Source of the DNA: Auricularia sp. M13
Lineage: Eukaryota; Basidiomycota; Agaricomycetes; Auriculariales; Auriculariaceae
Length of the DNA: 64,000 nt
Direction of reading: 5' to 3'
Assembly (NCBI GenBank): GCA_037042915.1
Contig: CM073202.1
Coordinates: 372,001 to 436,000 of the forward strand
Shown: in pieces, positions 21,531 through 63,390 of the stretch
How the letters are laid out: each line of letters opens with the position of its first letter
How positions within the stretch are numbered: position 1 is the stretch's first letter
Program-made: the position numbers and the translations under genes
Notes under the pieces: model-generated
Told to the model about the DNA's origin: nothing
Databases searched by the model: none
What the model saw: only the letters and a program-made list of their open reading frames with translations

Positions 21531-22606
21531 ATGGACGCGTACCCGACACCTTCGCCAACGGAAGCAGGTTTTGGTTCGCCCTCCATGAACGACTTACAAT
21601 TGCCCGAGGCATGTGACGCTGTCAATCAGTGGCACATTTTAAACCTAACACATTATACTCCCAGGTATTGGACAACTTCCGCTGGGCTCCAATGGAGGCG
21701 CCTCCTGAACCACCGCGCTCGGCAGGCGGGATTAGCGCACTTGCCAGATCGCCAACTGGGAGAAAGCAAAGCATTCCCTGCGACATCTCAGAGCCCGAAC
21801 TGGCTTTGGATGACGGTATTGCTGACTGTGACATCGACGACTACTATGGCTCAGTCTTTCAAGTCCCCGCCTCCGACGAGGACTCCGTTTATTCGTCTTC
21901 GGAACTGGGTTCACCTTCATACCGCCCCGACTGCAACGCAGCTGCACACGCGCCTAATGATTCTCTCCCGGACGCCGAAGCGCTTGCCGACGGCCCTCAA
22001 CGATTCTACGACTTGGTCAGCAATGTCGACCAACTCCCTATCAGCTCGAGGGCCGATGTGTTCTCAGTCATGGAACGCGGTCCTCAAGCATCGCAGTCGG
22101 GACTACATTACTTTCCGCGCAGACGTAGCCTGTCAGTTGCGGCGCGTACGCCTCCGCCTCCTCCGGTCCCACCGAAGGACGCAAAGTGGGTCCGACCTCG
22201 CGTTATGACGGCGACACATGTACCCTGGCCAGTAGATGCTCCGGACCCTGTGCTTCTGAGGGCGACTCTCGCTGCAGGCCGCCAATCCCGCACGCTGCGC
22301 CATGAGCACGCACTTCGCACGGCAGCGAGCTCACCATCCCTAGCGCGCGGAAAGTCCTACCCACCACATCCGTCCACTGGTCCGAGTGCTGCACACATGG
22401 ATTTCATGGGAACGACAACGGGTTCTCGCAAGCCGCTGAAGCAGCGCAAGCATCCGCAGTCGGTGTCCAATCTGCTTGCGCCTTTGCAGTCGCTCACTAA
22501 TAGCGTCGGCTCGTTTATGCACGAGGCATTCACCACGCCCATCACCATCCCGCGCCGCCCTAAACCCAAGCTCGGCCAATCGTTCAACCACCTCTTCGAC
22601 GATTAG
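21531..22606 (+). CDS. Unknown proline/serine-rich protein
   Basis: Two exons, 21531-21620 and 21665-22606, about 344 residues. The donor is uncertain: GTCAAT at 21621 gives a 44-base intron, and a GC donor at 21609 would remove four residues. The start MDAYPTPSPTEAG follows a TATA-like box. The protein is acidic in the middle (DDGIADCDIDDYYGS) and has a polyproline run followed by a basic patch (PPPPPVPPKDAKWVRPR). It ends in a basic region and LGQSFNHLFDD. No signal peptide, membrane segment or known domain is seen. Low-complexity content suggests a largely disordered protein, perhaps an adaptor or cytoskeletal partner, but that is a guess. Confidence 0.7.
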
Positions 22607-23349
22607 CTTCCTATTCATTCGCCAACCCGCTCAATAATCTCGATTCGTCTATTATCGTCCTTCGTTCACGCCAACTGGCATACTGTCAGTATCACCGCTC
22701 TTTAGCACGATCCCACGCCCCCACTGTCTCTCTAGCTTTTTTTTTTCCTATTCTCATTGCTCTCATTGCTCTTTGCTTCTCGCCAGCCTTCGGCACTCTA
22801 AAGCTGTATTTTCACCATCTATATCATACAACCGCAATACATCGATCTTAATCATACCCTTGAGTCTTGAGTGTGTCCTACTTAAGTAGCTCCCTGGAGA
22901 TAGGAAGCTGACGGAAGAGGTGCGACTCAGAGAAATGCCCTGGAACAATCTGTAGTGCTTTTACGAAGATGGCCCTGCAGCATCCCAGTTTCCCGTCAGT
23001 GTCGAGGTCAGAGTACTTATTCTAGGGGGCGATGCTGGTGAGATATCGGGTAGCGACTACTGATAGTCATATACCAGCGAAAAACGATCTACCTCAGTGC
23101 GACGGTCGATGCAGCGACGTCTCAGCCCTGCTAACTGCGAAAGAGGCTGGAAGTCACGTCCATCTGGTCGAGAAGCAAGTGCAGATCATATTGCAGCTGT
23201 CTGGATCAAATTTATGGCTTGACAGGCCGCCGCGCATCGTCAATAACTCCTGACGACATGGAAGGCTAAACCAATGACATCAGCGGCTAGGACGCGACTA
23301 CAAAAGATTCTGTGGCTACGCGGTTTGCTGTCACTTGTTCTTCCGACAT
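22607..23349. other. Intergenic region
   Basis: T-rich 3' flank with a run of 13 T near 22738, then AT-balanced sequence without a recognisable gene. I looked here for an upstream HD-domain part of the RelA/SpoT relic and found nothing convincing. Confidence 0.45.
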
Positions 23350-24153
23350 GCACAAGAACACGAGTCGCATCCCGTCTTCCGTCGGCACGCGTTCTCTTCC
23401 CGACGTGGGAGAGCGGGACGTTCTCGACGTCTAGGCACCTTTGGCACACCGTCTCGGCTTGTCCGTCCTCAAGCGCGAGCTGGAGGACGCCGCATTCCAG
23501 GAACTACACCCCGTGGAGCACTGCAAGATCACGCAGCTCATAGCCGAACGCCTGCCAAACTGGGACCGGTATCTGTCAGCAGTGCGCGAGCAAGCATTGA
23601 CGGTCTTACGCCATGCGAAGCTCGATGCGACGGTCCATGCACGCGTCAAGCGCCCTTACTCGATTTACCAAAAGATGAACGCCTTGGGCTATGGCTTCGG
23701 CGAAATACACGATCTCACCGGGATACGCATCCTTGTTGGAAGCGTACCCGAGTGTTATGTTTCCCTTGGCATCCTGCATAGCCATTGGTGTCTGGATGGT
23801 TCAAGGACTACATCGCCACGCCGAAGCCCAACCATTACCAGTCACTGCATTCTACTGTGACAGGACCGGAAGGGCAATTCCTAGAGATTCAGATCTGCAC
23901 ACACGCAATGCATCTGCGAGCCGAGCACGGCGTTGCCGCTCACTCGCAATACAAAGGCGAGGCGCACATCGTTGCGTCGGAGATGCCAGGTACCAAGGTG
24001 CACGCCGCGCTGTTACACAGGGTCAACGATTGGATCAAGGAGAATTAAGAAGAGAACTACCAGCGCACTCTCGACGCCGTCAAGCTCAAGCTCGAAGTTG
24101 TGGGTGAGGATGTGGTTGTAGTTACCTCAAACGGTCGACGCCTTAAGCTGTAA
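23350..24153 (+). pseudogene. Degenerate RelA/SpoT-type (p)ppGpp synthetase gene of bacterial type
   Basis: Pieces in changing frames follow the order of a long bacterial Rel protein. They are a faint end of the HD hydrolase domain near 23360-23430, then APLAHRLGLSVLKRELEDAA, the synthetase core ([63 protein letters not shown]), and the linker into the TGS domain (DVVVVTSNGRRLKL). The order and the VYQKM/AERxP-like phrases recall actinobacterial Rel. At least three stops or frame changes interrupt it, and the N-terminal hydrolase and C-terminal TGS/ACT parts are missing, so it cannot make a working enzyme. No fungal-type introns explain the breaks. The family makes or degrades the alarmone (p)ppGpp in bacteria and plastids. 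The likely explanation is an old horizontal transfer followed by decay. It lies about 210 bases before the sirtuin gene. Confidence 0.85.
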
Positions 24154-24365: not shown

Positions 24366-25422
24366 ATGCAAGACATAGAGCGTGCATCCAGCATAGGAAT
24401 GGAAAAATTTACTCAGGTCTTACGCTCATCCAAACACATCATTGCGGTGTGCGGTGCTGGCCTTTCGGCTGCTTCAGGTGTGTTATCGTCCAGCCTGACA
24501 CCATATGTCTACCCATCATGATGCGCCCCGTGAAACTTCCATAGGCATTCCCACATTCCGTGGCGCAGGTGGCTTATGGCGCAAGTACGACGCGATCAGC
24601 CTCGCAACACCAGAGGCTTTCGCTGAAGACCCTTCTCGCGTATGGCAATTCTACCACTATAGGCGCGAAAGGTATATTTAAACCGACCGTTTATGATTAC
24701 TTCTGATTAATTACCGTTCTCAGCGCGCTGAAGGCGCAACCCAACGCTGCACACCATGCTCTTGGCCAACTCACCCAAGTTGATATAAGGAAACAGCTCG
24801 CTCCAAACTGCACGTCCTTCAAGATTATAACCCAGAATGTTGATGGTCTTTCTCCTCGTGCCCACGCATCGCTGCCGAATCCTGAACAAGCCAACGACAA
24901 TACGTTCGAAATGCACGGCCGCGTGCACGACACCATATGCACGGTCTGTGGAAACCGCGACTACAACATCGACTCGCCGATTTGTCCCGCTCTTGCTGGC
25001 ACCGAGTTGCTGGTGGAAGAAGCGCACGAAGATAAGCACATTCCCGTCGAAGATTTACCAAGGTGCAAGAAAGACGGCTGTGGCGGGCTCCTCAGGCCAG
25101 GCGTTGTGTGGTTTGGCGAGGTTCCTCTTCGACTGGACGAGATTGACAGATACGTTCAGAATGCCGACTTGTGTCTTGTCGTTGGTACTTCTTCGACGGT
25201 GGGTAATATGCCCGCAAAGCTAGTCATCTAACTAAATAGTCTTCGTAGGTTTACCCAGCTGCTGGATACGCGAGCGAGGTGCTGGACAACGGTGGATCAG
25301 TGGCCGTCTTCAATATTGCCAGGTCAGATTGGGACGATGAGGCCGACTTCCTGTTTCTTGGGTCGTGCGAAGATTCGCTTCCTCGTGCGCTTGGAATATC
25401 TCCAGTTACCGCGGCTGCTTGA
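24366..25422 (+). CDS. SIRT5-like class III sirtuin, NAD-dependent lysine deacylase
   Basis: Four exons: 24366-24477, 24545-24671, 24724-25198 and 25249-25422, giving 295 residues. Sirtuin core motifs in order are [15 protein letters not shown] (30-44), TQNVDG, catalytic His in FEMHG, two zinc Cys pairs (CTVC and CKKDGC), PGVVWFGE, and [14 protein letters not shown]. The phrase FYHYRRE (about 73-79) carries the Tyr and Arg that in human SIRT5 (Tyr102 and Arg105) bind succinyl, malonyl and glutaryl groups, so a desuccinylase-type activity is likely. No strong mitochondrial presequence is evident, and a second Met at residue 12 is an alternative start. Class III sirtuins occur in bacteria, animals and some fungi but not in budding yeast. 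Introns show it is a settled fungal gene despite the neighbouring bacterial-type relic. Confidence 0.9.
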
Positions 25423-37569: not shown

Positions 37570-38464
37570 ACGTGCGCGCTGGTGCGGGATCTCGCGACTC
37601 GAGGGGCCGCAGTGTCAACATTCGCTCCTGGGCGAAGGCATGCATCGCGCGTTCTAGTTCGGCGCACGCACCGCGGTTTCTTGCGCTACGCAGACGCTGC
37701 GAGTTTCTGCATCGGCACTTATGCTAACGTCCGCCGAGCACCTCTACGCTGACGCAAGCCGCACCTCTCCCGTGAAATATATTCCGCGTCTCTAGAGACG
37801 CACTCGATGTATTTACGCGCCGACGCACGCCATACGCCTCAGCGACAACACGGCATTGCCTCTTCCTTTCCGTGAAGCACACATCGCACTTCCCCGCAAA
37901 GTCCACAAGGCGCCTCCATGCAGATCATCACTACGTCCCTGCTACACAGATGCGTTTTCACTACAATAATACGCACCGTCCTTTACCGCGAGACACGCCG
38001 CGTATTTACACGCAGATCCGACGCAATCTACACATTCCCGCACCAACGCACCCCCCTTACAACACACTAACTCCCGCACATAACCGTCATAAACGTATCC
38101 CGGTCGAACCACGGCCGGAACCCGGTGGCGCCCCGGCGGCATTTTGGCGATACCTCGGCCACATCTCGGCCAAACCTCGGAACCCAATCGACTGTGCCCT
38201 GAACATGCCTGAGGAGACCATACGCCATGGCACATGTGCCCCACATCGCCCCTCTCAAGACACTGAGCTGCATGATGCCCTGAACCGGCAATGGCCCAGC
38301 AGCCTCAGACCAAGGCTATGCACAACCCAAGCTAGTGCCCTTTTGCTGCCTAATTTACTGACCCTCGGGGACAGGAAGCAGCAGAAGGAAGCGGAGGTCT
38401 ATTTAGACCACGAGCAAGCCGCGCGGAGACGCTGAAGCCTGATGGAAATCGCACAGTCCGGACT

Positions 38465-40141
38465 GTGCGAGTAGTACTGACTGGCATAGCTCACCGTGCT
38501 GGCCGGTATGCCAGCTGCGCAGGATGGGTGCGCTGGCCCCTCTCTGCAAGATGTACAGCGCGAAACCCAATTACCACCAACAACACATCTCAGGTGACAA
38601 TTGATCGGTCTGGTTACACGTTCCAGAGCACCGAACCAGAGGTTTCTGATGCTGCCCTTCCCTCTGTGGATGATGGTGCTCAGGAAGCAGGAGGCAGCGC
38701 TTCGGGGAGAGAGTTCGTGATGAACAACATTCTGACGCCAGAAGGCTGGCGTCAAGATGCGCATCAGTCTGGCAAATCCGGCACTGACGCAAGCGACCTA
38801 ACTACGCCACGATCAGTGGCAGGGTCGAGCTCAGCATATGAACAGACACCATCTGATGCTGGGAATAACTACTCAAACCATGCAGTATTACCAATAATGC
38901 AGGACAATCAGACGCGCTCAAAGAAGAGCACCAAAGCCTATATCAAACTGGCCTCTGAGAATATGAAAGGCCGTGGTGCGCAGAAGATAGCTGGCAGCGT
39001 CAAATGGAAAAAGATTGCAGAAGACATTCGCAGTCAGAAGATTGGCATCATGGCCATTCAGGAGACTCACCTTGATGCGCAGCACCTGGATGAAATTCAT
39101 CGCTACTATGAACATCTACATGTAGAGAATACTGCGCTGCCAGCAAACCCCACGGGCGCGGGGGGCGTTGCGCTGGTCTTCAACAAGCTACTTACAAATT
39201 ATCGCACTATTGACACTCATGTCCTGGTTCCAGGCAGAGCGATAGTGTGCAAAATCGAATGGCATAGGGACTCAAGCCTGGTCGTCCTCGCCATATACGC
39301 GCCCACCACTGCTAAGGCAAATAAAGAGTTCTGGGAGACTCTGAAAAAGACTCTCAGGCGTGCAAAGGGCAAGATTCCCAAACCAGATGTCATGCTGGGA
39401 GATTTCAACCAGGTGGAAGACCCCATCGATCGCTTCCCTGCAAAATTGTCAAAGATAGATGCACCACAGTCCTTCGAAGACCTCAAAAGGTATCTGAAAG
39501 TCACAGATGGGTGGAGAGACACCTTCCCTGACAGCATCGAATGGACATGGAGGAACATGCCTCTGTCATCCATGTCTCGCATTGATAGGATCTACTTGAC
39601 CAGCAAAATGCGTGCAGTCAGTAGACAATGGGGAATTAATGTGTCGAGCATAAATACATACGATCACAGCAGAATCTCAGTTGAGTTAGTGTGCAGAGAT
39701 GCGCCAGACATTGGCCCTGGACGCTGGACCATGTCTGAGAACCTAACAAGAGATAAGATTTTCATGTCAGAGGTGTACAAACTGGGCAAAGACGCCCAGT
39801 CAGAAATGGACACCATCGCCTTTTTGGGTAGAACAGAATACAATAACCCCCAGCGTACCTGGGAGCGTCTGAAAGAGCAGATCAGAAAGGCTGCAAAGAC
39901 TAGAAGCAAAAACCTCAACTGCGCCAGGCGCACAAAATTGACAAAAGCGCAAGAACAGAGAAACTCTGCCAAAACCTGCCTGAGAGCAGCATCCTCGCCT
40001 GATGAAATCACAGAGGCAAAAGCGCAGCTCAGAAAAGCTGAAATGGAGATCTACAATCTACAGGATGGCTCGCACACCTCCATATTCCAGAATAGATCAA
40101 CACGTGTCTGGCTGGAAGCAGAGACCATGTCCAAGTCCTAG
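38465..40141 (+). CDS. LINE ORF, endonuclease part
   Basis: Open from before 38465; the first in-frame ATG is at 38720. It carries the AP-endonuclease fold of LINEs: Asn in ASENMKG, Glu in IQETHLD, VLAIYAPTT, catalytic Asp/Asn in MLGDFNQVED, SRIDRIYL, and Asp-His in YDHSRIS. A basic linker follows, and the frame stops at TAG (40139-40141). The next frame continues in the same phase, so the stop splits one original protein between endonuclease and reverse transcriptase. Confidence 0.88.
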   Translation: MRVVLTGIAHRAGRYASCAGWVRWPLSARCTARNPITTNNTSQVTIDRSGYTFQSTEPEVSDAALPSVDDGAQEAGGSASGREFVMNNILTPEGWRQDAHQSGKSGTDASDLTTPRSVAGSSSAYEQTPSDAGNNYSNHAVLPIMQDNQTRSKKSTKAYIKLASENMKGRGAQKIAGSVKWKKIAEDIRSQKIGIMAIQETHLDAQHLDEIHRYYEHLHVENTALPANPTGAGGVALVFNKLLTNYRTIDTHVLVPGRAIVCKIEWHRDSSLVVLAIYAPTTAKANKEFWETLKKTLRRAKGKIPKPDVMLGDFNQVEDPIDRFPAKLSKIDAPQSFEDLKRYLKVTDGWRDTFPDSIEWTWRNMPLSSMSRIDRIYLTSKMRAVSRQWGINVSSINTYDHSRISVELVCRDAPDIGPGRWTMSENLTRDKIFMSEVYKLGKDAQSEMDTIAFLGRTEYNNPQRTWERLKEQIRKAAKTRSKNLNCARRTKLTKAQEQRNSAKTCLRAASSPDEITEAKAQLRKAEMEIYNLQDGSHTSIFQNRSTRVWLEAETMSKS

Positions 40142-40150
40142 TTCAGCTGG

Positions 40151-43100
40151 GTGAAAAGTAAAAAACCGCGTGATACCATGATGCAACTCAAGCGCCCAGG
40201 GTGTGAACCAGCACAGTATGTTCTGGAATCACGCGATATGGCAGATTTGGCTGGAGAATACCACAACTCGATCCAGTCCAAAGATCTGGACGTAGATGAA
40301 GCTGCGCGCTCACTGGCCATAGAGCACGCTTTAGATCACCTGGAGCGTCGCGCAGATGCAAGTGCGCGTGCCAAACTAGCAGCTGTAATATCAAGAGAGG
40401 ATGTAACTGAATCTCTGGCGTCCTCGAAATGTGGAAAAGCTGCTGGCTTAGATGGACTCATATATGAACTCTGGAAAGTCATCCACAAGCAGTTCTGTAA
40501 ATCCAGGGGCAAAGAAGATCAAACCTTTGACGTCGTGGGTATGATGACAATGGTCTTTGAAGATATTGAACTCCATGGCTTAGACGCAGACTCCAAATTC
40601 GCAGAAGGCTGGCTGTGCCCCTTGTACAAGAAGGGAGATAGAAGTGAGATCGCGAATTATAGGCCGATCACACTCCTCAACACAGACTACAAAATTTACA
40701 CCAAGGCCTTGGCGCTCAGGCTGGCCAGCATTGCGCCCCAGCTCATTCATGAATCTCAGGCTGGCTTTGTCCAGGGTCGCAGTATCACAGACCACTCCAA
40801 AATCACGAGTCTCATCCTTGATTACGCTGAAGCCAAGGAAGAAAATGGCGCCATTGTAGCGCTGGACCAGGAAAAAGCTTATGATCGCATAAGACATGAC
40901 TATCTGCACAAGATTCTCAAAGCCTTTGGCTTCCCAGAGCACTTTGTGAATGCGGTCAGGACGCTGTATGAAAATGCTTTCACTGTGGTCATGATCAATG
41001 GCTTCGCAAGCAAAAAGTTTAGAGTTACCAGAGGCGTCAGACAGGGAGATCCCCTCTCCTGCTTGCTTTTTAACTTGGCAATAGAGCCGCTCTCAGCTAT
41101 GCTCAGACGCTCTGAGCTGCAAGGCTACAAGATTGATGGCATTGAGGGCAAACTAATCGCCACATTGTATGCAGATGATACAACAGTGTACATGAGTGAG
41201 AATGACTCTTACCAGCGCCTCTTCCAGATCCTGGACCAGTGGTGCCTTGCAGCAGGTGCTCGCTTCAATGTGCAGAAAACTGAAATCGTTCCAATGGGTA
41301 CAAAAGAGTACAGGACACAGGTCCTGGATTCGAGACGCCTCAGAGATGGGGACCCTGCCATCCCAGACTCAGTGCGCATTGCCAGAGATGGCGAACCCAT
41401 TCGCATACTTGGTACCTGGCCAGGCAATGGAGTGCAGAATGTGAATGCCTGGTCCTCCATCCAGGACAAAATTGCTGAAACTCTACAAAGATGGGAAAGT
41501 AAGCGCCCCTCGCTTAATGGGAGGAGCATTATATCACAGGTTGTGGTAGGCGGATTTACCCAGTACCTTACTGCTGCCCAAGGCATGCCAACTAAGTTGG
41601 AAAAACGCCTGGATAAAATGACGCTTGACTTCCTCTGGGCAGGCTCTCGCCGCCACCCAATTAATATGGATACTCTGCGCCTGGGTAGAGACCATGGAGG
41701 TCTGGGTCTGTTCCACACTGAGAGCAGAAATGATGCGCAATACCTGAAATGGGTGGGCGCATATATCAAAAATGATGAGACGCGTCCAATGTGGACCTAC
41801 CTGGCAGACTTCATCTTCAGAATGGCCATCATCAACAAGGACAAGAAATGGGTGCCGACAGACGCACGCATCAACCCCTTCCAACAGGTGTGGCGACCCA
41901 ACAAGCAGAAACTACCTTTCATCTTGCAGCAAATGGTGAGGGTTGCAGCTAAATATAATGTCGCCCTTGATGCGCCTCAGATCCCAGAACATATAAGGGA
42001 AGATATGCCCATATGGGCACACCCAGCCATGGGACAACCAGATGCTCTGCGAGAATATAGGAGAGAAGTGCGATGCCTAAAGACCTCTCATGCAGTCTGT
42101 ACGGTTGAAGATCTAGAAGAGATAGCTGAACCTGATGACTTTGACCATGAGGAGTCTAGCACCTGCATATGCGACAATTGCATGACTGATAGAACAGAGG
42201 GCTGCAAGAACCCCTTCAAATGCCAGGAATTTGCTCGTGACATTCTGAGCGAGCTTGCGCCCAAGTGGAACACTGCGACCACACAGGCTGAAGTAGACTC
42301 CAGCATGTGGGAAACTTTCGTAGAGGGTCGCATGGAGGCAATCCAGGCTGGTGAACCAATAATTTTCGACCCAACCCTACACCAAGGTGATGATCTGGCC
42401 AGCTACTACAGAGCTTTCGTGGACACAATGGCCCTCAGTGAGAGAGGGGTGACAGATACCATATGTGATGCGGCACCTGTACGACCACATGGAGACAAGG
42501 ATGCAGAGGCTGTGGAAGTGGTCGTCTGCGGTGCAATCATAAATGGAGACTCAGCAATTGCCAAGGGCGGCTTTGCAGCATATTTTCCAGAACACGATTT
42601 CGACGACAAAGTGGGCTACTGCCCAGGGGATACACACTCCTATGTGCGCAGTGTAGCCACAGCAATAAAGATGGCAGCAACAACGGCACCAAGACATCGC
42701 CCTCTGCACATGATCAGCACCAGTGCAGCAGTGGTAAGAATGCTCACCCTCGATTTATCCAAGCATGAGTCCACTGGTTGGATGGACTTGCCAAATGAGG
42801 CAGACGCCATGCGAGCAGCGGCTGCAGCTCTGCGTGCCAGAGGTGCACCGACCTCGTTCACATGCATAGCCAAGAACAGAGTCAAGCACTGGCCACAGGT
42901 TGGAGAGGCAAGAAAAATGGCCCTTGTGGCTGCAGAAGTGGGCCCACTTTTTGACTCGGACCTCGAGGAGCTGGTGCCCTTTGATAAGCCTGGGCTTGCA
43001 ATTGCAAATATCACTCAGAGAGAAGCACATAGAGCCATAAAATGGCTCGCCCAGAAAAAAGTCAAACAGCGAAAAGCGACTCTGGAAAATCTCAAACTAA

Positions 43101-43816
43101 TAAAATGGCGTGTACATCATGCGACAGACTTCATGCCACTGGAGTCTCAGTTCTGGCAGAGTCTGCAATCCAAAAACCTCTCGCGCAGTGTGCGCAACTT
43201 CCTTTGGAAGATGGCCCATGGTGCGCACAAAGTTGGCGACTATTTCAGCAAAATGCCAGAACCATGGGCGTCATATGCCACATGTCCATCATGCCAGGAA
43301 ACTGAGACCATGGAACACATCCTCCTAAAATGCGAGAGCTCAGGTTTTGAAACAGTATGGGCCCTGGCCCAGGACTTCTTGAAGAGTCGCAAGATCAACA
43401 TAGACATAGACATCGGGGTTATCATGGGTTGTGCAACCATGCGAATCGGACACATGGGGTCTGCAAGAAATCGTGCGCTGGAGCGCATCTTCTGCATTAT
43501 TGTGTCAGAATCCGCCTTCCTGATCTGGAAGATAAGGTGTGAAACCCGTATTGAGCACGCTGAGGATCCGGACTGGGTCATGCCAGAAGAGGAGGTGGCC
43601 AAAAGATGGAAGAAAATGTGCGAATCACGTCGCGTGCAGGATAAACTTCTCACAAATAAACATCGTTACAAGACGAAGGCGCTGTGCAATGTGCTATATG
43701 AAGATACTTGGATAGATCGCAGTGCCAACCCTGATTACTGGAAAGCACAATTTTGGAATAAACAGACCGGTTTTTTAGTGGGTACGGGGAATGACACCAG
43801 GAATGGTGTCGGTTGA
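40151..43816 (+). CDS. LINE ORF, reverse transcriptase part
   Basis: Continues the phase of the preceding frame for about 1,220 residues. Reverse transcriptase motifs: GLDGLIYELWK, NYRPITLLNTDYKI, AGFVQGRSITDH, motif A LDQEKAYDRI, motif B GVRQGDPLSCLLFN and motif C LYADDTTVY (about 41165). A middle region at about 42500-42930 resembles RNase H in layout but lacks its acidic residues. Near the end is a zinc finger, CPSCQETETMEHILLKC. In the family this protein nicks the target and copies the RNA in place. Usefulness of this copy is doubtful because of the upstream stop. Confidence 0.9.
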   Translation: MKSKKPRDTMMQLKRPGCEPAQYVLESRDMADLAGEYHNSIQSKDLDVDEAARSLAIEHALDHLERRADASARAKLAAVISREDVTESLASSKCGKAAGLDGLIYELWKVIHKQFCKSRGKEDQTFDVVGMMTMVFEDIELHGLDADSKFAEGWLCPLYKKGDRSEIANYRPITLLNTDYKIYTKALALRLASIAPQLIHESQAGFVQGRSITDHSKITSLILDYAEAKEENGAIVALDQEKAYDRIRHDYLHKILKAFGFPEHFVNAVRTLYENAFTVVMINGFASKKFRVTRGVRQGDPLSCLLFNLAIEPLSAMLRRSELQGYKIDGIEGKLIATLYADDTTVYMSENDSYQRLFQILDQWCLAAGARFNVQKTEIVPMGTKEYRTQVLDSRRLRDGDPAIPDSVRIARDGEPIRILGTWPGNGVQNVNAWSSIQDKIAETLQRWESKRPSLNGRSIISQVVVGGFTQYLTAAQGMPTKLEKRLDKMTLDFLWAGSRRHPINMDTLRLGRDHGGLGLFHTESRNDAQYLKWVGAYIKNDETRPMWTYLADFIFRMAIINKDKKWVPTDARINPFQQVWRPNKQKLPFILQQMVRVAAKYNVALDAPQIPEHIREDMPIWAHPAMGQPDALREYRREVRCLKTSHAVCTVEDLEEIAEPDDFDHEESSTCICDNCMTDRTEGCKNPFKCQEFARDILSELAPKWNTATTQAEVDSSMWETFVEGRMEAIQAGEPIIFDPTLHQGDDLASYYRAFVDTMALSERGVTDTICDAAPVRPHGDKDAEAVEVVVCGAIINGDSAIAKGGFAAYFPEHDFDDKVGYCPGDTHSYVRSVATAIKMAATTAPRHRPLHMISTSAAVVRMLTLDLSKHESTGWMDLPNEADAMRAAAAALRARGAPTSFTCIAKNRVKHWPQVGEARKMALVAAEVGPLFDSDLEELVPFDKPGLAIANITQREAHRAIKWLAQKKVKQRKATLENLKLIKWRVHHATDFMPLESQFWQSLQSKNLSRSVRNFLWKMAHGAHKVGDYFSKMPEPWASYATCPSCQETETMEHILLKCESSGFETVWALAQDFLKSRKINIDIDIGVIMGCATMRIGHMGSARNRALERIFCIIVSESAFLIWKIRCETRIEHAEDPDWVMPEEEVAKRWKKMCESRRVQDKLLTNKHRYKTKALCNVLYEDTWIDRSANPDYWKAQFWNKQTGFLVGTGNDTRNGVG

Positions 43817-57780: not shown

Positions 57781-59112
57781 GGATTAGTGGTTGGATACGA
57801 AGATTTAAGGGATCTCCTGGTGGATGGTCAATGCCTTTTAACTCCTGCTTCGCACGGAGAGTACTTACTAGTCATAGCTTCAGGGATCAGCAGCGCACAA
57901 AACTTACCAACCCTCGCTCAGCTGAGACTTGGAAGGTTGCGCCGGTGACGATTTATGTATATTATATGGCACATGCAGTGGCTAGCCCCGTATTTCCCTA
58001 CCCCTCGGCCAATCTATTTAGTAAACCAGCCCAGCTTTCAGTCCTCTCGTCCTCGGTCTAACTCTCCTGCCAACGTAAAGTCTGCAAAGGAGACTACCTG
58101 GCAGCTGCCAGCAGGTACCGTCTCAGTCAGAACATCCGCGGCTGCAGTACCGGTATCTCCAACGCCGAATTCGACATGCCACGGTGCACTGCCAGCACGT
58201 GCAAAGTGACAAACACGGGCTGGCAGTCTTCCTGAATCCCGATACAGCTGCACCCGAGTCAATGCGCACCGTTGATAAAGGATAGGCTTTCCCATTGGAT
58301 TGTTTGCGGAAGGCCGACCCCGGGGAAGCTGAGAAGCTTTCCGGGATGAGTTCAGGCTTGCTTGGAACGGTTGAGGGTGGGGAACTCATCTCATCTCATC
58401 TCTCAAAGGAAGTTGTGAGTGAGGAGTGACTCCGGAAGAGGGATGATCGAATTGCCATGTGTGACTGTCGATGACGCGGGCAGCCTATCGAGGATCCAGG
58501 CTGCCTATCTGAGCGTGGGCGCGTCCGAAGTGCCAGTTGAGTGGGTGCAGTCTAGATCGTGGTAAGGGAAACCCGGGCACGTGCGCAGCGTCTCAGCTAG
58601 CGTGAAAACTGGGGGGCTGCTGAGCAATTAAAGAAAGTTATTTAGATCAGGAGCAGGCGACGTGAAAATGAGTGTGAAATCATGCAGAGTGGTGGGAGTG
58701 GGCGGTGGACCATGCATTATGCGTGAGGCTGGAGGAGCAGAGGCGCGCGCTCATCGGAGATACAGCCAGTGTCGTCGTCGGCGTTTGGCAGGCGATGGGC
58801 GTCCGTCCGTTCCTGGGCGCCGGCCCAACAGGGGCTAGTGCCTGACAAACCAGTGCTCGCGGCGCGTCTGCCGTGCGCGTCCCTTGTTGCAGGCTGCGTT
58901 CAGCGGTCTGCAGTCGTTGGCAGTAAGCGACAAGGTGAAGACGGCATTCAGGAATTGAAGTGGAGCGCCACTTGCATTTGAAATGAAAGTGTACAGTTTG
59001 TAGTACGTAAGGGAGTACATTCAATCATGATGGTGTAATCGAGATCTACATTGAAAGTCCGGCTGCTTAACTTGGTTTCGATTCGAACCTTGGCCCGGCT
59101 CATGTCTCTCCA
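57781..59112. other. Intergenic region, P450 to proline-rich gene
   Basis: Mixed sequence with short low-complexity runs (TCATCTCATCTCTC near 58387). No gene recognised. Confidence 0.5.
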
Positions 59113-62100
59113 ATGATCCTCGACGACGTTCTGCTCGACGCCAAACCCATTCCCGACACCGTCCCGAGAACGCCGAGGCGCGGCATAATTTCGTCGCCGC
59201 CGTCGTCCGAGTCTACTTCCTCGTCGTCATCCGCGTCCTCCGCGTCGCCACGGACGATGGCCAACTTCCCCTTCGCGCAGCTGCTGCGCGACGCCGGCGT
59301 GCTCTCCGCGCTGTGCGAGTTTATGACCTGGAATGACGCCTACGCTTCCCTGTGCACGTGCCGGGCCGCGCGAAGCACGTTCGACCGCGCCGCGACCAAG
59401 TCCGTTTGGCTGCGCCGCTACGTCGCCGGCTACGCGCGCGGCGTCGACGTCCCCTTCGTGCCCGCCGTCGAGCTCGAGCACCTCGTCTTATTCAGTGCGT
59501 GCTGGCCGCCTGCCGCGTGATAGTAGGCCTGGCTGATGTGATTCTGAACCTTAGTGGCATCACAGGCCGAGCCGCTGCATCGATACCCCGCGCTGGCGCT
59601 CGCGCTGCTGTCGGGCGCGGCGCTGGGCCCGCCGTCGCCCGAGGACGACGTGCGCGCGCACAAGCTCGAGCAGCTGGCGCTCGCGCATACGCGGATGGTC
59701 CTCGTCCTGCGCGCGCGCGCCCCGCCGCTCGGAGCCGACGGGGACGACGCGCCGCCGGCGCCGCGCGCGCCGGCGCCCGCCGAGCGCGAGCTGGCGTTCC
59801 CCGCGCCCCTCGCGTACTTCGGCGAGGGCGCCGCGCCGCCGGCCAATACGGGCACGACGCCGCCGCCAGCCGCTGCGCCGACGTCATCGACGTCCTCCGC
59901 CCCGCCGACGTTACGACATCGCGAGCCGACGCACCAGAAGCGCAACTCCAATCGGCTCTCGCGTATCTTCTCCGCCGCGCCCAAAGCACCGCCGCCCGCG
60001 CCTCAGAGGGATAAGCGCTTCTGGGAGGACATGCGCCGCGAGCGCCGCATATCCCGTCACGTGCACAGCCAGAGTCTTAGCGACGTTGAATCGACTCGCG
60101 TGCGCGCCGCCCGCCAGTCCATGTATGGTTTACGTGCATTAGGCCCTGGGGGATCTGATTTTGCGAGGTCTATGCACGACCCGGCACTAGCCAGCTCACG
60201 CGCGCGAGCGCTTGTACTGCGCTTATTTGTTCCATGTGCGTGGCTGGACGCCGATGCTCTGGCGGAATGCGAGTCACAACTTCGCGACGAGGGGTTCTGG
60301 CCATATCTTCAACCTGGCGACGTCGTCTGCAACTTGGGCTACGTGCCAGAAACAGACGCCCAGATCGCATGGGTCATCCACACCGGGACAAGGTTACAAG
60401 TCTGGACATTGTCTGAACCTCCACCCGTCGCGCCAGACGCAGCAATGCGTCTCCCGTCACCGTTCTACTTCGCGCATCTCTCGCCGAGTGGAGGAGGCTC
60501 GCAGCCACCATCGGGTCTGACGAGCCGGGCGAGCATGTACAGCGTTAACGGCCCATTATCCGCGTCCACACCGACGTTGGGCAACCAAGCGCCATTCTTC
60601 GCGGCGCTCTCCTTACACCGACGTCCAGGCTCCAGCGGTGGCGGCGGGCCACCGAGTGCGTGGTCAGGTTTCGGCGGCGGCCCCGCGCCGTCTATGCGCA
60701 CGACGTCGAGCGTCACACCGTCCAGCAGCGACCCGCGCTGGATACTCCGAATACCGGCGCTGCCGCCCGCGCAGTGGGTGCTGGCGCAGCAGCATGCGAA
60801 CGTGATGTTGAAGCCGCGGATGGGGATGCCGAGCGAGGTAAGGGTGCGGCGGTTTGTGTGGCTTGCTATTGTGGACTTGCGCCGCGTGTCCGTTCCGCCT
60901 GTTCCACCGTTGCCGGAGTGGGCGCGGGCACAGGGGCGAATGCCCACCAGCCAGAGTGCGCCGGTGTTGGCGCAGTCGCAACTTGCGGATGCTCATGGTG
61001 AGTCTCGATCTCTTCATCGTATTCTCGTTCTATTCTGCCTATCTTGCGCTGGGCCGCGACTGCTGTCGAGCTTGGCGACGCTGCGCGGTCGGTCTGCCGC
61101 CTGTGTCGCATCGCCGCGCTCGCGCTCCACCGCCAGCCCGGCTCTGAGCCCACGGCATGGACCTGGAATGAGCGGCAATGTCAATAATTTCGCGCGGGCA
61201 TCCCTCGTGCCTCCGCGATTCGATTCGTGCGTGCGCGGCTGCTGAGCGTTCGGGGGCGGCAGTACAGCGTCTCCTCGGACGAGAGCTCGCTCATTCGAGA
61301 GTCGCGAGGGGCACACGGCAAGCTCGCGATCGGTGACCTGCGGCGCCTCTCCTCAGTCACGCGTCGTGGTCTCTCCGTTCTAGCTCTATTCGCCTTTATT
61401 TCATCGCGGTTGTGTCCGAGCGTTGCTGACGAATTATATTTGTAGAGGCGATGGGCCCGGGCTGGCACCGCGAATGGGTGCTCGAAGCCGCCGGCACCCC
61501 CGAGGGCCGCACTGCGCTGGAGGCCGTTTTAAATGGCGCTGGCGGTGACAGGGAGTGGATAATCCAGCGCGAAAAGTGCGCTGGTGGGCGGCTATGGATG
61601 CGGTATGTCGGGTTCGCGTTCTCTTTACTGCCTACTAATTGACGTTGACATGTAGATTGGTCGACTGGCCCGCGTACGACCCAGAAGCGGACGGCATGAC
61701 GTCTCCGCACGAGCGCCTCGCGATGACGCCGACGCTGCCTCCCGCACATCCAGTACGCCCATTGGACGTCGACCTCGGGCGGCCGCTCGAGTTCTCCGTT
61801 GCGGCGGCAGGAACGGCTCGCGCGCAGCAGCAGAACATGCAGCTCAACCAGCCGCCGCAACGGCGCGTCGTTTCGCAGCCCCCGCCGTCGCGCAGGCTGT
61901 CGAAGACACGGTCGAAGCGCAACCCGTCGCCGTCGCCTGCGCCGTCGTCGCACAACCCTAGGGAGTCGTCGCAGTCGCTGACGACGGAGGAGGACCCGCA
62001 GAAGACGCCGATGCCATCGGCGTGGCAGCAGGTGCAGCCTTGGTCGTCGCCTGCACCGTCAAGATACAGTAGCCCGCCTGCGCCGTCGGCATATGCTCCC

Positions 62101-62838
62101 TCGGCGTATGCTAATGCGCCACCCTCGCAGTTCCAGAGCCCACCACCCTCACAGTTCCACAGTCCCCCGCCGTCCCAGTTCCACAGCCCGCCGCCCTCGC
62201 ACTATCATAGTCCGCCACCGTCTCATGGCCCACCACCGTCACAGTATCCCAACCTTCCACCGCTAATGAATGGTCCACCGCCCGCGCGCTATACGAGCCC
62301 GCCTCCGTCCAGCAGTCTGCCGCCTAGCATCCACACGACTCCTCCGCCGCACCAGCCTCCGCGCACGGCGTCTCCGCCCCGCAGCCCGCATGCGCTGTCG
62401 CCGTCGCCGGTGAAACGCACGTCGTCGCCGCTGAACCCGAAGAACCACCCGCCGCCGTCGGTGTCGTTGAACAGCACGTCGAGCTCGAGCCTGCACTCGC
62501 CGTCGAGCGTCAGCCTGTCGAGCAGCGTGGCGACGCCGCCGCCGGAAACGCCGTCGAAGCCGCGCGGGCTGCCGCCTGGCGCCGCGCCGCCGCAACCGCA
62601 GCACTTGCCGCCGCTGCCGCCGAAGCAGCAGCAGGCGCTGCCGTCCGAAGACGCGCCGCCGCCGCCGCCCAAAGTGTCGACGACGAATCCGAAGCGCGAC
62701 CCCGCGCCGACGTCGCCGCGCGGGTCGGTGTTCGGCGCCGCAACGGGCCTGCTGCCGCCCCCGCCGCCGCCACCGAAGACGCCGAGCCGGAAGCTCACGC
62801 GGCGCCGCGTCGTCAGCGCGCTCATCCCCGGACTTTAG
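59113..62838 (+). CDS. Large proline/serine-rich protein with F-box-like N-terminus, function unknown
   Basis: Clear exons are 59113-59494, 59555-60997, 61446-61602 and 61656-62838. The stretch 60998-61445 holds one or two more exons I could not settle: one frame gives RGRQYSVSSDESSLIRESRG and another a Ser/Pro-rich text. Total is over 1,050 residues. Residues about 48-85 (FPFAQLLRDAGVLSALCEFM, WNDAYASLCTCRAARSTFDR) look like an F-box variant. Structured parts follow: LRLFVPCAWLDADALAECES, GFWPYLQPGDVVCNLGYVPE, WVIHTGTRLQVWTLSEP, and later PGWHREWVLEAAGTPEGR. The last 390 residues are a disordered proline tail with SQFHSPPP repeats. Fungal-specific by appearance. It may be a cytoskeletal or polarity scaffold, but nothing proves this. 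Confidence 0.75.
62125..62247 (+). repeat. 24-base coding tandem repeat (SQFHSPPP)
   Basis: Five imperfect units of about 24 bases in frame within the proline-rich tail, reading SQFQSPPP, SQFHSPPP twice, SHYHSPPP and a shortened SHGPPP. Length-variable repeats like this often differ between strains. Confidence 0.85.
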
Positions 62839-63390
62839 TCTGCTTGTATCTCAAACTCATCTTAGTTGCTTCCCGGATCGCATTTGACCTAGAAACTCTT
62901 TACGCTAGACATTTCCCCGTAGCCCGCTCTCTTTTTTGCATGGGTGCACTGTATTTCTTACCTACTTACTTACGATACGACGAGATTGATATACGGAAAA
63001 TGATGACTCGGAATTGCGGATTGGTTTGACTTGAAGCCTTCTGTTCGTCAGTGGCCCAGTGATTTGACTTGGCTAGACGTTGCTGGACTGATTCTGCGCT
63101 ATTTTATGTGTAATCGAGCTTGTTTGAAAGAGGGGCAGGTACATATGAGAGTCACTGTCAAGCTTCTCTGAGCTCGGCCGCAAATACGCGAGACCGCAGT
63201 TGGATTTGATTATTTTGAGCTATATCAAAGTGAGGAGATTACTTTTTCTGCTGATACATGAGAGATAGAAATGCTGATACATGAGAGATAGAAATGCGCC
63301 GGAGATATCAATACAGTCTAGGAATTAGTCCATAATCCACTCACAACAATTCATCTGCAAGGGGCGGTCAGGAATTGATCCCATGATATA

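What the first reader, a model, noticed from the sequence alone, without database searches (positions are those of the whole stretch)
23350..24153. Relic of a bacterial-type RelA/SpoT alarmone synthetase in a fungal genome
Ordered pieces of the (p)ppGpp synthetase domain and the start of the TGS linker are readable, in several frames with stops. Long Rel proteins are typical of bacteria and plastids. The surrounding genes have fungal introns, so simple contamination is unlikely. The wording of the pieces recalls actinobacterial Rel. This suggests a horizontal transfer that later decayed, and intact homologues may survive in related fungi.
Basis: partly seen in the sequence, partly recalled or inferred. 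Interest (0 to 1): 0.78.

Follow-up and report, generated by a model that had tools for sequence, protein, structure and literature searches.

The report
Decayed bacterial alarmone-synthetase gene in fungus
A fungus, probably a basidiomycete, carries the broken remains of a bacterial stress-alarm gene (Rel, which makes the signal ppGpp), probably acquired from an actinobacterium, that evolved like a working gene for a long time and is now disabled.

Summary
Window 23414-24150 (+) encodes, in two frames, the end of the HD-SYNTH connector, the (p)ppGpp-synthetase domain, the linker and the start of TGS of a long-type Rel (Pfam RelA_SpoT 2e-11 and 4e-18). It is disabled by a TAG, a net 7-base deletion with frameshift, a TAA, and loss of HD, most of TGS and ACT. 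It is the only Rel-like locus found in this 52.1-Mb, 14-contig genome and lies about 210 bp upstream of an intron-bearing sirtuin gene.

Best listed relatives are Actinomycetota (57% identity; Bacillota 51%, Chloroflexota 49%). Trees place it inside Actinomycetota; a place outside is rejected (AU p = 0.024), a place with Bacillota only marginally not (p = 0.0555).

The divergence is not neutral decay: 48 of 52 near-invariant residues are kept against 52 of 121 others, and codon positions 1, 2, 3 are 64, 70, 44% identical to Actinomycetota. So the gene was mostly under selection and was silenced late. No fungal database was available, so intact fungal homologues remain a prediction.

The parts
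23414..24150 (+). Whole recognisable relic: Rel consensus columns 178-417 of 738 (end of HD-SYNTH connector, SYNTH, linker, first part of TGS)
   Evidence: frameshift-aware profile alignment, score 444; controls
23414..23431 (+). RDVLDV, matching RETLEI at the HD-SYNTH junction
   Evidence: anchored extension P = 0.0005 of 2000 shuffles
23432..23434 (+). In-frame TAG where the bacterial consensus has Tyr just before APLAHRLG
23435..23788 (+). First part of the synthetase domain (APLAHRLG ... LHSHW)
   Evidence: Pfam 2.2e-11, TIGR00691 5.2e-34, PDB Rel chains to 1.9e-30
23789..23793 (+). Frameshift: 5 bases where bacterial Rel has 4 codons (net -7)
23794..24045 (+). Second part of the synthetase domain (GWFKDYIA ... 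AAHSQYK) and linker
   Evidence: Pfam 4.1e-18, TIGR00691 1.3e-23, PDB Rel chains to 2e-17
24046..24048 (+). In-frame TAA in the linker
24049..24150 (+). Linker and start of TGS (DVVVVTSNGRRLKL), then TAA at 24151; homology ends here
   Evidence: no TGS/ACT remnant downstream above chance
21617..22606 (+). Upstream neighbour: 329-aa open frame (stop to stop) without a Pfam match
24366..25422 (+). Downstream neighbour: sirtuin gene with gt...ag introns; ends inferred from the sequence; begins about 210 bp after the relic
   Evidence: Pfam SIR2 7.3e-17 for 24707-25231; GAGLSAASG / IPTFRG split by an intron, seen in the sequence

Best explanation
It is a pseudogene, without an intact copy in the genome, of a horizontally acquired long-type Rel ((p)ppGpp synthetase) of actinobacterial type in a fungal, probably basidiomycete, nuclear genome. 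Shown: homology, order, lesions, truncation, single copy, a neighbouring intron-bearing gene, closest similarity to Actinomycetota among the bacteria searched, and a substitution pattern of purifying selection. Inferred: the gene was received from an actinobacterium, evolved for long as a working synthetase, lost its HD, most of TGS and its ACT region, and was silenced. Today it should make no enzyme. While intact it would have made (p)ppGpp from ATP and GTP/GDP (established for the family, recalled). Such an activity slows yeast growth unless a hydrolase is present (PMC5527313), and no HD_4 hydrolase was found in this genome, which offers a plausible reason for its loss.
For: Domain matches. 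Extent and lesions. Single copy by family, protein and DNA search of the genome. Actinomycetota are best: 378 of 396 genomes match, top listed identity 57%, against 51% in Bacillota (59 of 61 match) and 49% over full-length matches in Chloroflexota (60 of 61 match). Trees; AU test rejects a place outside Actinomycetota, p = 0.024. Constraint: 48 of 52 columns conserved at 95% or more in 126 bacterial rows are kept, against 52 of 121 others, Fisher p 2e-10; codon-position identity 0.64/0.70/0.44, mean over 71 Actinomycetota. Third-position GC 0.67, within the range of four open stretches of host genes (0.57-0.79) and below the Actinomycetota median of 0.945; all 23 Actinomycetota rows of the clade that holds it have 0.87 or more. 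No HD_4 match in the genome. Fungal host: eIF3 subunit and P450 matches in the window, STE3 receptors in the genome.
Against: No intron in 737 bp, although an actinobacterial amylase gene in Agaricomycotina gained introns fast (PMC3584928); this favours a younger transfer. No close donor was found, so the long end branch (1.83) may lie partly in an unsampled bacterium. 6 of 72 Actinomycetota have third-position GC of 0.70 or less, so composition alone does not prove long residence. Against columns conserved in Actinomycetota alone the relic keeps 61 of 69, and breaks 4 of 41 that never vary there. Two nonsense codons are also not very unlikely under wholly neutral divergence (P of two or fewer = 0.14). 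Placement with Bacillota and one deltaproteobacterial row is not rejected at 0.05 (p = 0.0555). In one search no strongly supported set holds the relic, and in neither tree had the bootstrap settled. In one search its partner L003 had been fetched through patterns taken from the relic, so that pairing is biased.
Confidence: 0.8

Rival explanations
1. Younger transfer from an unsampled, divergent bacterium of moderate GC: most divergence arose in bacteria, the gene was never useful in the fungus, and decay began at once.
For: No introns; few lesions; 6 of 72 Actinomycetota have third-position GC of 0.70 or less; no listed full-length match above 57% identity.
Against: All 23 Actinomycetota rows of the clade where the tree puts it have third-position GC of 0.87 or more; its end branch is longer than that of every Actinomycetota row but L067; no close donor among the 396 Actinomycetota and 392 same-genus genomes searched.
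Confidence: 0.25
2. Still-working gene: stops and frameshift are hidden by introns, recoding or assembly errors.
For: Most near-invariant residues are kept; the TAG is followed by G, like a 3' splice site.
Against: Homology runs through the TAG; the frameshift is a 7-base loss, too small for an intron; HD and most of TGS/ACT are not found nearby or in the genome.
Confidence: 0.05
3. Contamination or assembly join of bacterial DNA.
For: Bacterial-type protein; only one copy.
Against: Host-like third positions, disabling lesions, an intron-bearing gene about 210 bp downstream, in one of 14 contigs of a 52.1-Mb assembly.
Confidence: 0.03
4. Transfer from another eukaryote, for example a plastid RSH of an alga or plant.
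For: Long RSHs occur in plants and algae (PMC3153485, PMC6881373, passages); none could be fetched here for comparison.
Against: Actinomycetota affinity among the bacteria tested.
Confidence: 0.06
5. Decayed fungal small synthetase or the RelA_SpoT effector domain of an NLR.
For: Such domains exist in Ascomycota (PMC3153485, PMC4986451, passages).
Against: The HD-SYNTH connector, the TIGR00691 span and the TGS start are long-Rel features.
Confidence: 0.02

Closest known systems
Long RSH (Rel, HD-SYNTH-TGS-ACT; TIGR00691), Actinomycetota type
   Same: Sequence of the SYNTH domain (to 57% identity), HD-SYNTH connector, linker and TGS start in the same order
   Different: HD, most of TGS and ACT missing; two nonsense codons and a frameshift; in a fungal nuclear genome
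Fungal divRel small synthetases and RelA_SpoT domains of fungal NLRs (PMC3153485, PMC4986451, passages read)
   Same: RelA_SpoT domain in a fungus; transfer is proposed for divRel
   Different: Those are synthetase-only or NLR-fused, and the examples seen are from Ascomycota; this one derives from a long Rel and is broken
Actinobacterial alpha-amylase transferred to Agaricomycotina (PMC3584928, passages read)
   Same: Transfer from an actinobacterium to basidiomycetes
   Different: The amylase gained many introns and persists; the relic is intronless and broken

Membership tests
Long RSH (Rel) | RelA_SpoT synthetase domain | tested here: met
   both halves above Pfam's curated cut-off (44.5 and 66.1 bits against 27)
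Long RSH (Rel) | HD hydrolase domain upstream | tested here: not met
   only six residues at the junction; upstream + strand scores 31.8, reached by 1 of 24 shuffles, so a very decayed trace is not excluded
Long RSH (Rel) | TGS and ACT domains downstream | tested here: not met
   only the start of TGS; the rest no better than shuffles, 5 of 24 on +
Long RSH (Rel) | Open reading frame | tested here: not met
   TAG, frameshift, TAA: a derivative, not a working member
Actinomycetota-type Rel | Groups with Actinomycetota in a tree | tested here: met
   exclusion p = 0.024, grouping with Bacillota p = 0.0555; no strongly supported set
Fungal SAS / NLR RelA_SpoT | Closer to ascomycete synthetase-only domains than to long Rel | not testable with these tools
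   no fungal RSH sequences at hand; long-Rel flanks argue against
Horizontally transferred pseudogene | Embedded in host chromosome beside host genes | tested here: met
   sirtuin with introns downstream, contig C10 of G000; no reads to check the junctions

The most novel reading that the evidence does not exclude
A basidiomycete lineage ran a bacterial-type long Rel alarmone synthetase for a long time, under selection, and this species has only lately lost it; intact, working long Rel genes, and so (p)ppGpp signalling outside plastids and bacteria, still exist in related fungi.
Probability: 0.4. Interest if true: 0.78.

Novelty: new variant of a known kind. Interest (0 to 1): 0.5.

Why it matters
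Long Rel enzymes were reported from bacteria, plants and algae; the 2011 survey found in fungi only small synthetases (some Ascomycota) and Mesh1 (Cryptococcus) (PMC3153485, passages read). A long Rel that evolved like a working gene before dying in a fungus suggests that a fungus could live with, and perhaps use, a bacterial stress alarmone that inhibits yeast. It gives a concrete locus, upstream of a sirtuin gene, at which to look for intact copies.

Tried and rejected
Remnants of HD upstream or TGS/ACT downstream: none above the highest shuffle (HD on + was reached by 1 of 24 shuffles, the other three by 5 to 20 of 24), and seven short frames around the relic gave no Pfam match. A weak in-frame resemblance of 23291-23413 to the HD end was tested and dropped (P = 0.28). 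A closer donor: none above 57% over full-length matches listed in 396 Actinomycetota, 61 Bacillota, 61 Chloroflexota and 392 same-genus genomes (the lists of 24 and 51 are capped, best first; shorter Chloroflexota pieces reach 59% over 73 residues). The scan of GTDB genomes for six short patterns confirmed 21 of 61 stretches, best 53%; plasmids, searched with the first piece only, reached 48%; IMG/VR confirmed none of 44 stretches. Affinity to Streptomyces L003 (support 94/94) is not trusted: that locus may have been pulled in by a pattern from the relic (GWFKDYIA was among the six), and the relic was unresolved within a 24-row clade. Repeats that might mark an insertion: only short ones. PADLOC gave weak hits to one family (5e-6 and 0.0012) and PHROGs none. 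No RNA family or tRNA in the window. Host naming failed: no 5.8S among 39 of 2128 candidates scored, laccase loci could not be cut out, and the paper listing showed no assembly of this size. The number of stops alone does not prove constraint. Rows dropped: 11 loci and 6 duplicates before the 43-protein profile; L018, L033 and L035 (too short); six divergent rows before the conservation counts; 17 rows on long branches before the second tree. One search used 86 of 133 rows, one search used 52. One search failed with a script error and was mended.

Full report
What is there. The stretch 23414-24150 on the + strand encodes, in order, the last residues of the HD-SYNTH connector, the synthetase domain, the following linker and the first strand of the TGS domain of a long-type Rel. 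Searched apart, the two open pieces match Pfam RelA_SpoT at 2.2e-11 and 4.1e-18 and TIGR00691 at 5.2e-34 and 1.3e-23 on adjoining profile stretches 142-262 and 262-341, below that model's whole-protein cut-off. Solved Rel chains match at 1.9e-30 (first piece) and 2e-17 (second piece). A frameshift-aware alignment to a profile of 43 bacterial Rel proteins scores 444. Upstream and downstream DNA scored against the HD and TGS/ACT columns gives 24-32; each value is reached by at least one of 24 shuffles, the HD one on + by only one.

Lesions. There are three: a TAG at 23432 in place of the consensus Tyr before APLAHRLG, a net loss of 7 bases at 23789-23793 that shifts the frame, and a TAA at 24046 in the linker. 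Homology crosses the TAG (P = 0.0005) and continues past the TAA into the TGS start (P = 0.004), so the TAG is not simply a splice site and the TAA not the natural end. The HD domain, most of TGS and ACT were not found in the neighbourhood, and no HD_4 domain was found in the genome (searched exon by exon, so an intron-rich gene could be missed).

Setting. The window is C10:372001-436000 of a genome of 52,096,326 bases in 14 contigs. The relic is the only place that matches PF04607, a full bacterial Rel at E up to 1, and its own DNA; these searches score only the best candidates. Downstream by about 210 bp begins a sirtuin gene with gt...ag introns; upstream by about 810 bp ends a 329-codon open frame. 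The window also holds eIF3-subunit, P450 and F-box frames. Two STE3-type pheromone receptor genes lie about 41 kb apart on C7; the 14 prokaryotic control genomes have none. Such pairs suit the mating-type loci of basidiomycetes (recalled). The species was not identified.

Origin. With the same query, 378 of 396 Actinomycetota genomes match, best listed 57% identity; 59 of 61 Bacillota, best 51%; 60 of 61 Chloroflexota, best 49% over full-length matches. In 392 genomes of the genus of L003's genome (titled Streptomyces) all 392 match; none of the listed matches, best first, exceeds 56%. In a tree of 86 rows the relic lies in a 24-row clade with 23 Actinomycetota rows (83/94) on a long end branch of 1.83; no strongly supported set holds it. 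In a 52-row tree without 17 long-branch rows it joins L003 (94/94) within a clade of same-genus rows (91/97), a pairing that may be biased by how L003 was found. In both trees the bootstrap had not settled. Placing the relic outside Actinomycetota is rejected at p = 0.024; with Bacillota and one deltaproteobacterial row p = 0.0555. The donor is therefore probably, not certainly, an actinobacterium.

Constraint before death. Of columns conserved in 95% or more of 126 bacterial sequences the relic keeps 48 of 52; of the rest, 52 of 121 (Fisher p 2e-10). Presumed working sequences of similar overall identity (the 25 lowest, left out one at a time) keep 89-100% of such columns. Counted on 71 Actinomycetota alone, it keeps 61 of 69. 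Identity to 71 Actinomycetota at codon positions 1, 2 and 3 averages 0.64, 0.70 and 0.44. Neutral decay of a recent import would lower all positions alike. Changes at fully invariant columns are two over all bacteria (an Arg to Cys and a Trp to Ser) and four over Actinomycetota alone. The number of stops is not by itself telling.

Where the divergence arose. Third-position GC is 0.67; four open stretches of host genes have 0.57-0.79; 72 Actinomycetota have a median of 0.945, and 6 of them 0.70 or less, none of these in the clade that holds the relic. This suits long residence in the fungus. Against it, the relic has no intron, while an actinobacterial gene in Agaricomycotina gained introns quickly (PMC3584928, passages read). 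I leave this open.

Why it might have been lost. An inducible relA slows yeast growth and human Mesh1 relieves this (PMC5527313, abstract and sections 7 and 14 read). A fungus without a hydrolase would have reason to silence such a gene; this is inference.

Literature. PMC3153485 (passages) reports in fungi only divergent small synthetases and one Mesh1. PMC4986451 (passages) and PMC10197012 (passages) report RelA_SpoT as a minor NLR effector domain; PMC9815663 (passages) uses it as a search seed. PMC3482391 (passages) discusses the domain as a bacterial toxin part, and PMC6881373 (passages) long RSHs of algae. PMC9965611 (passages) says small synthetases and hydrolases occur in a few lower eukaryotes. 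PMC11708051 (passages) finds 8,815 prokaryote-to-fungus events; the words ppGpp and pyrophosphokinase are not in its main text, and its supplements were not read. The listings of searches showed no report of a long Rel in a fungus; they list only their best rows, and journals outside the library may hold one.

Verdict. A single-copy, late-silenced pseudogene of an actinobacterial-type long Rel in a fungus, probably a basidiomycete. It is a new variant of known things (bacterial transfer to fungi; RSH outside bacteria). Its interest rests on whether intact fungal relatives exist.

Noticed in passing
window 38354-43813: Two long adjoining open frames on +, one with an endonuclease/exonuclease/phosphatase domain (595 aa), one with a reverse transcriptase and zf-RVT (1224 aa): looks like a LINE-type retroelement with both frames open.
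   Followed up: partly
G000:C7:1494922-1537722: Two STE3-type pheromone receptor genes about 41 kb apart, like a basidiomycete mating-type locus; three of the five matched stretches contain one stop each, perhaps introns.
   Followed up: no
L003 2413-3540: Streptomyces sp. AC550_RSS872 has a second, short Rel frame (HD and SYNTH only, 375 aa stop to stop) besides a full-length one, with GWFKD where 68 of 70 other Actinomycetota rows have the usual Arg.
   Followed up: partly
G485:C10:89313-92667; G513:C1:1711250-1714936; G522:C16:31795-35473; G504:C16:65231-67966; G472:C56:8840-11728: Five genomes of the 61 drawn for Chloroflexota carry two long Rel-type frames close together on the same strand.
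   Followed up: no
window 59001-63000: GC-rich stretch (64-69%) with many overlapping long open frames on both strands; gives chance-like tblastn matches, many of them to N-terminal ends of Rel proteins.
   Followed up: no
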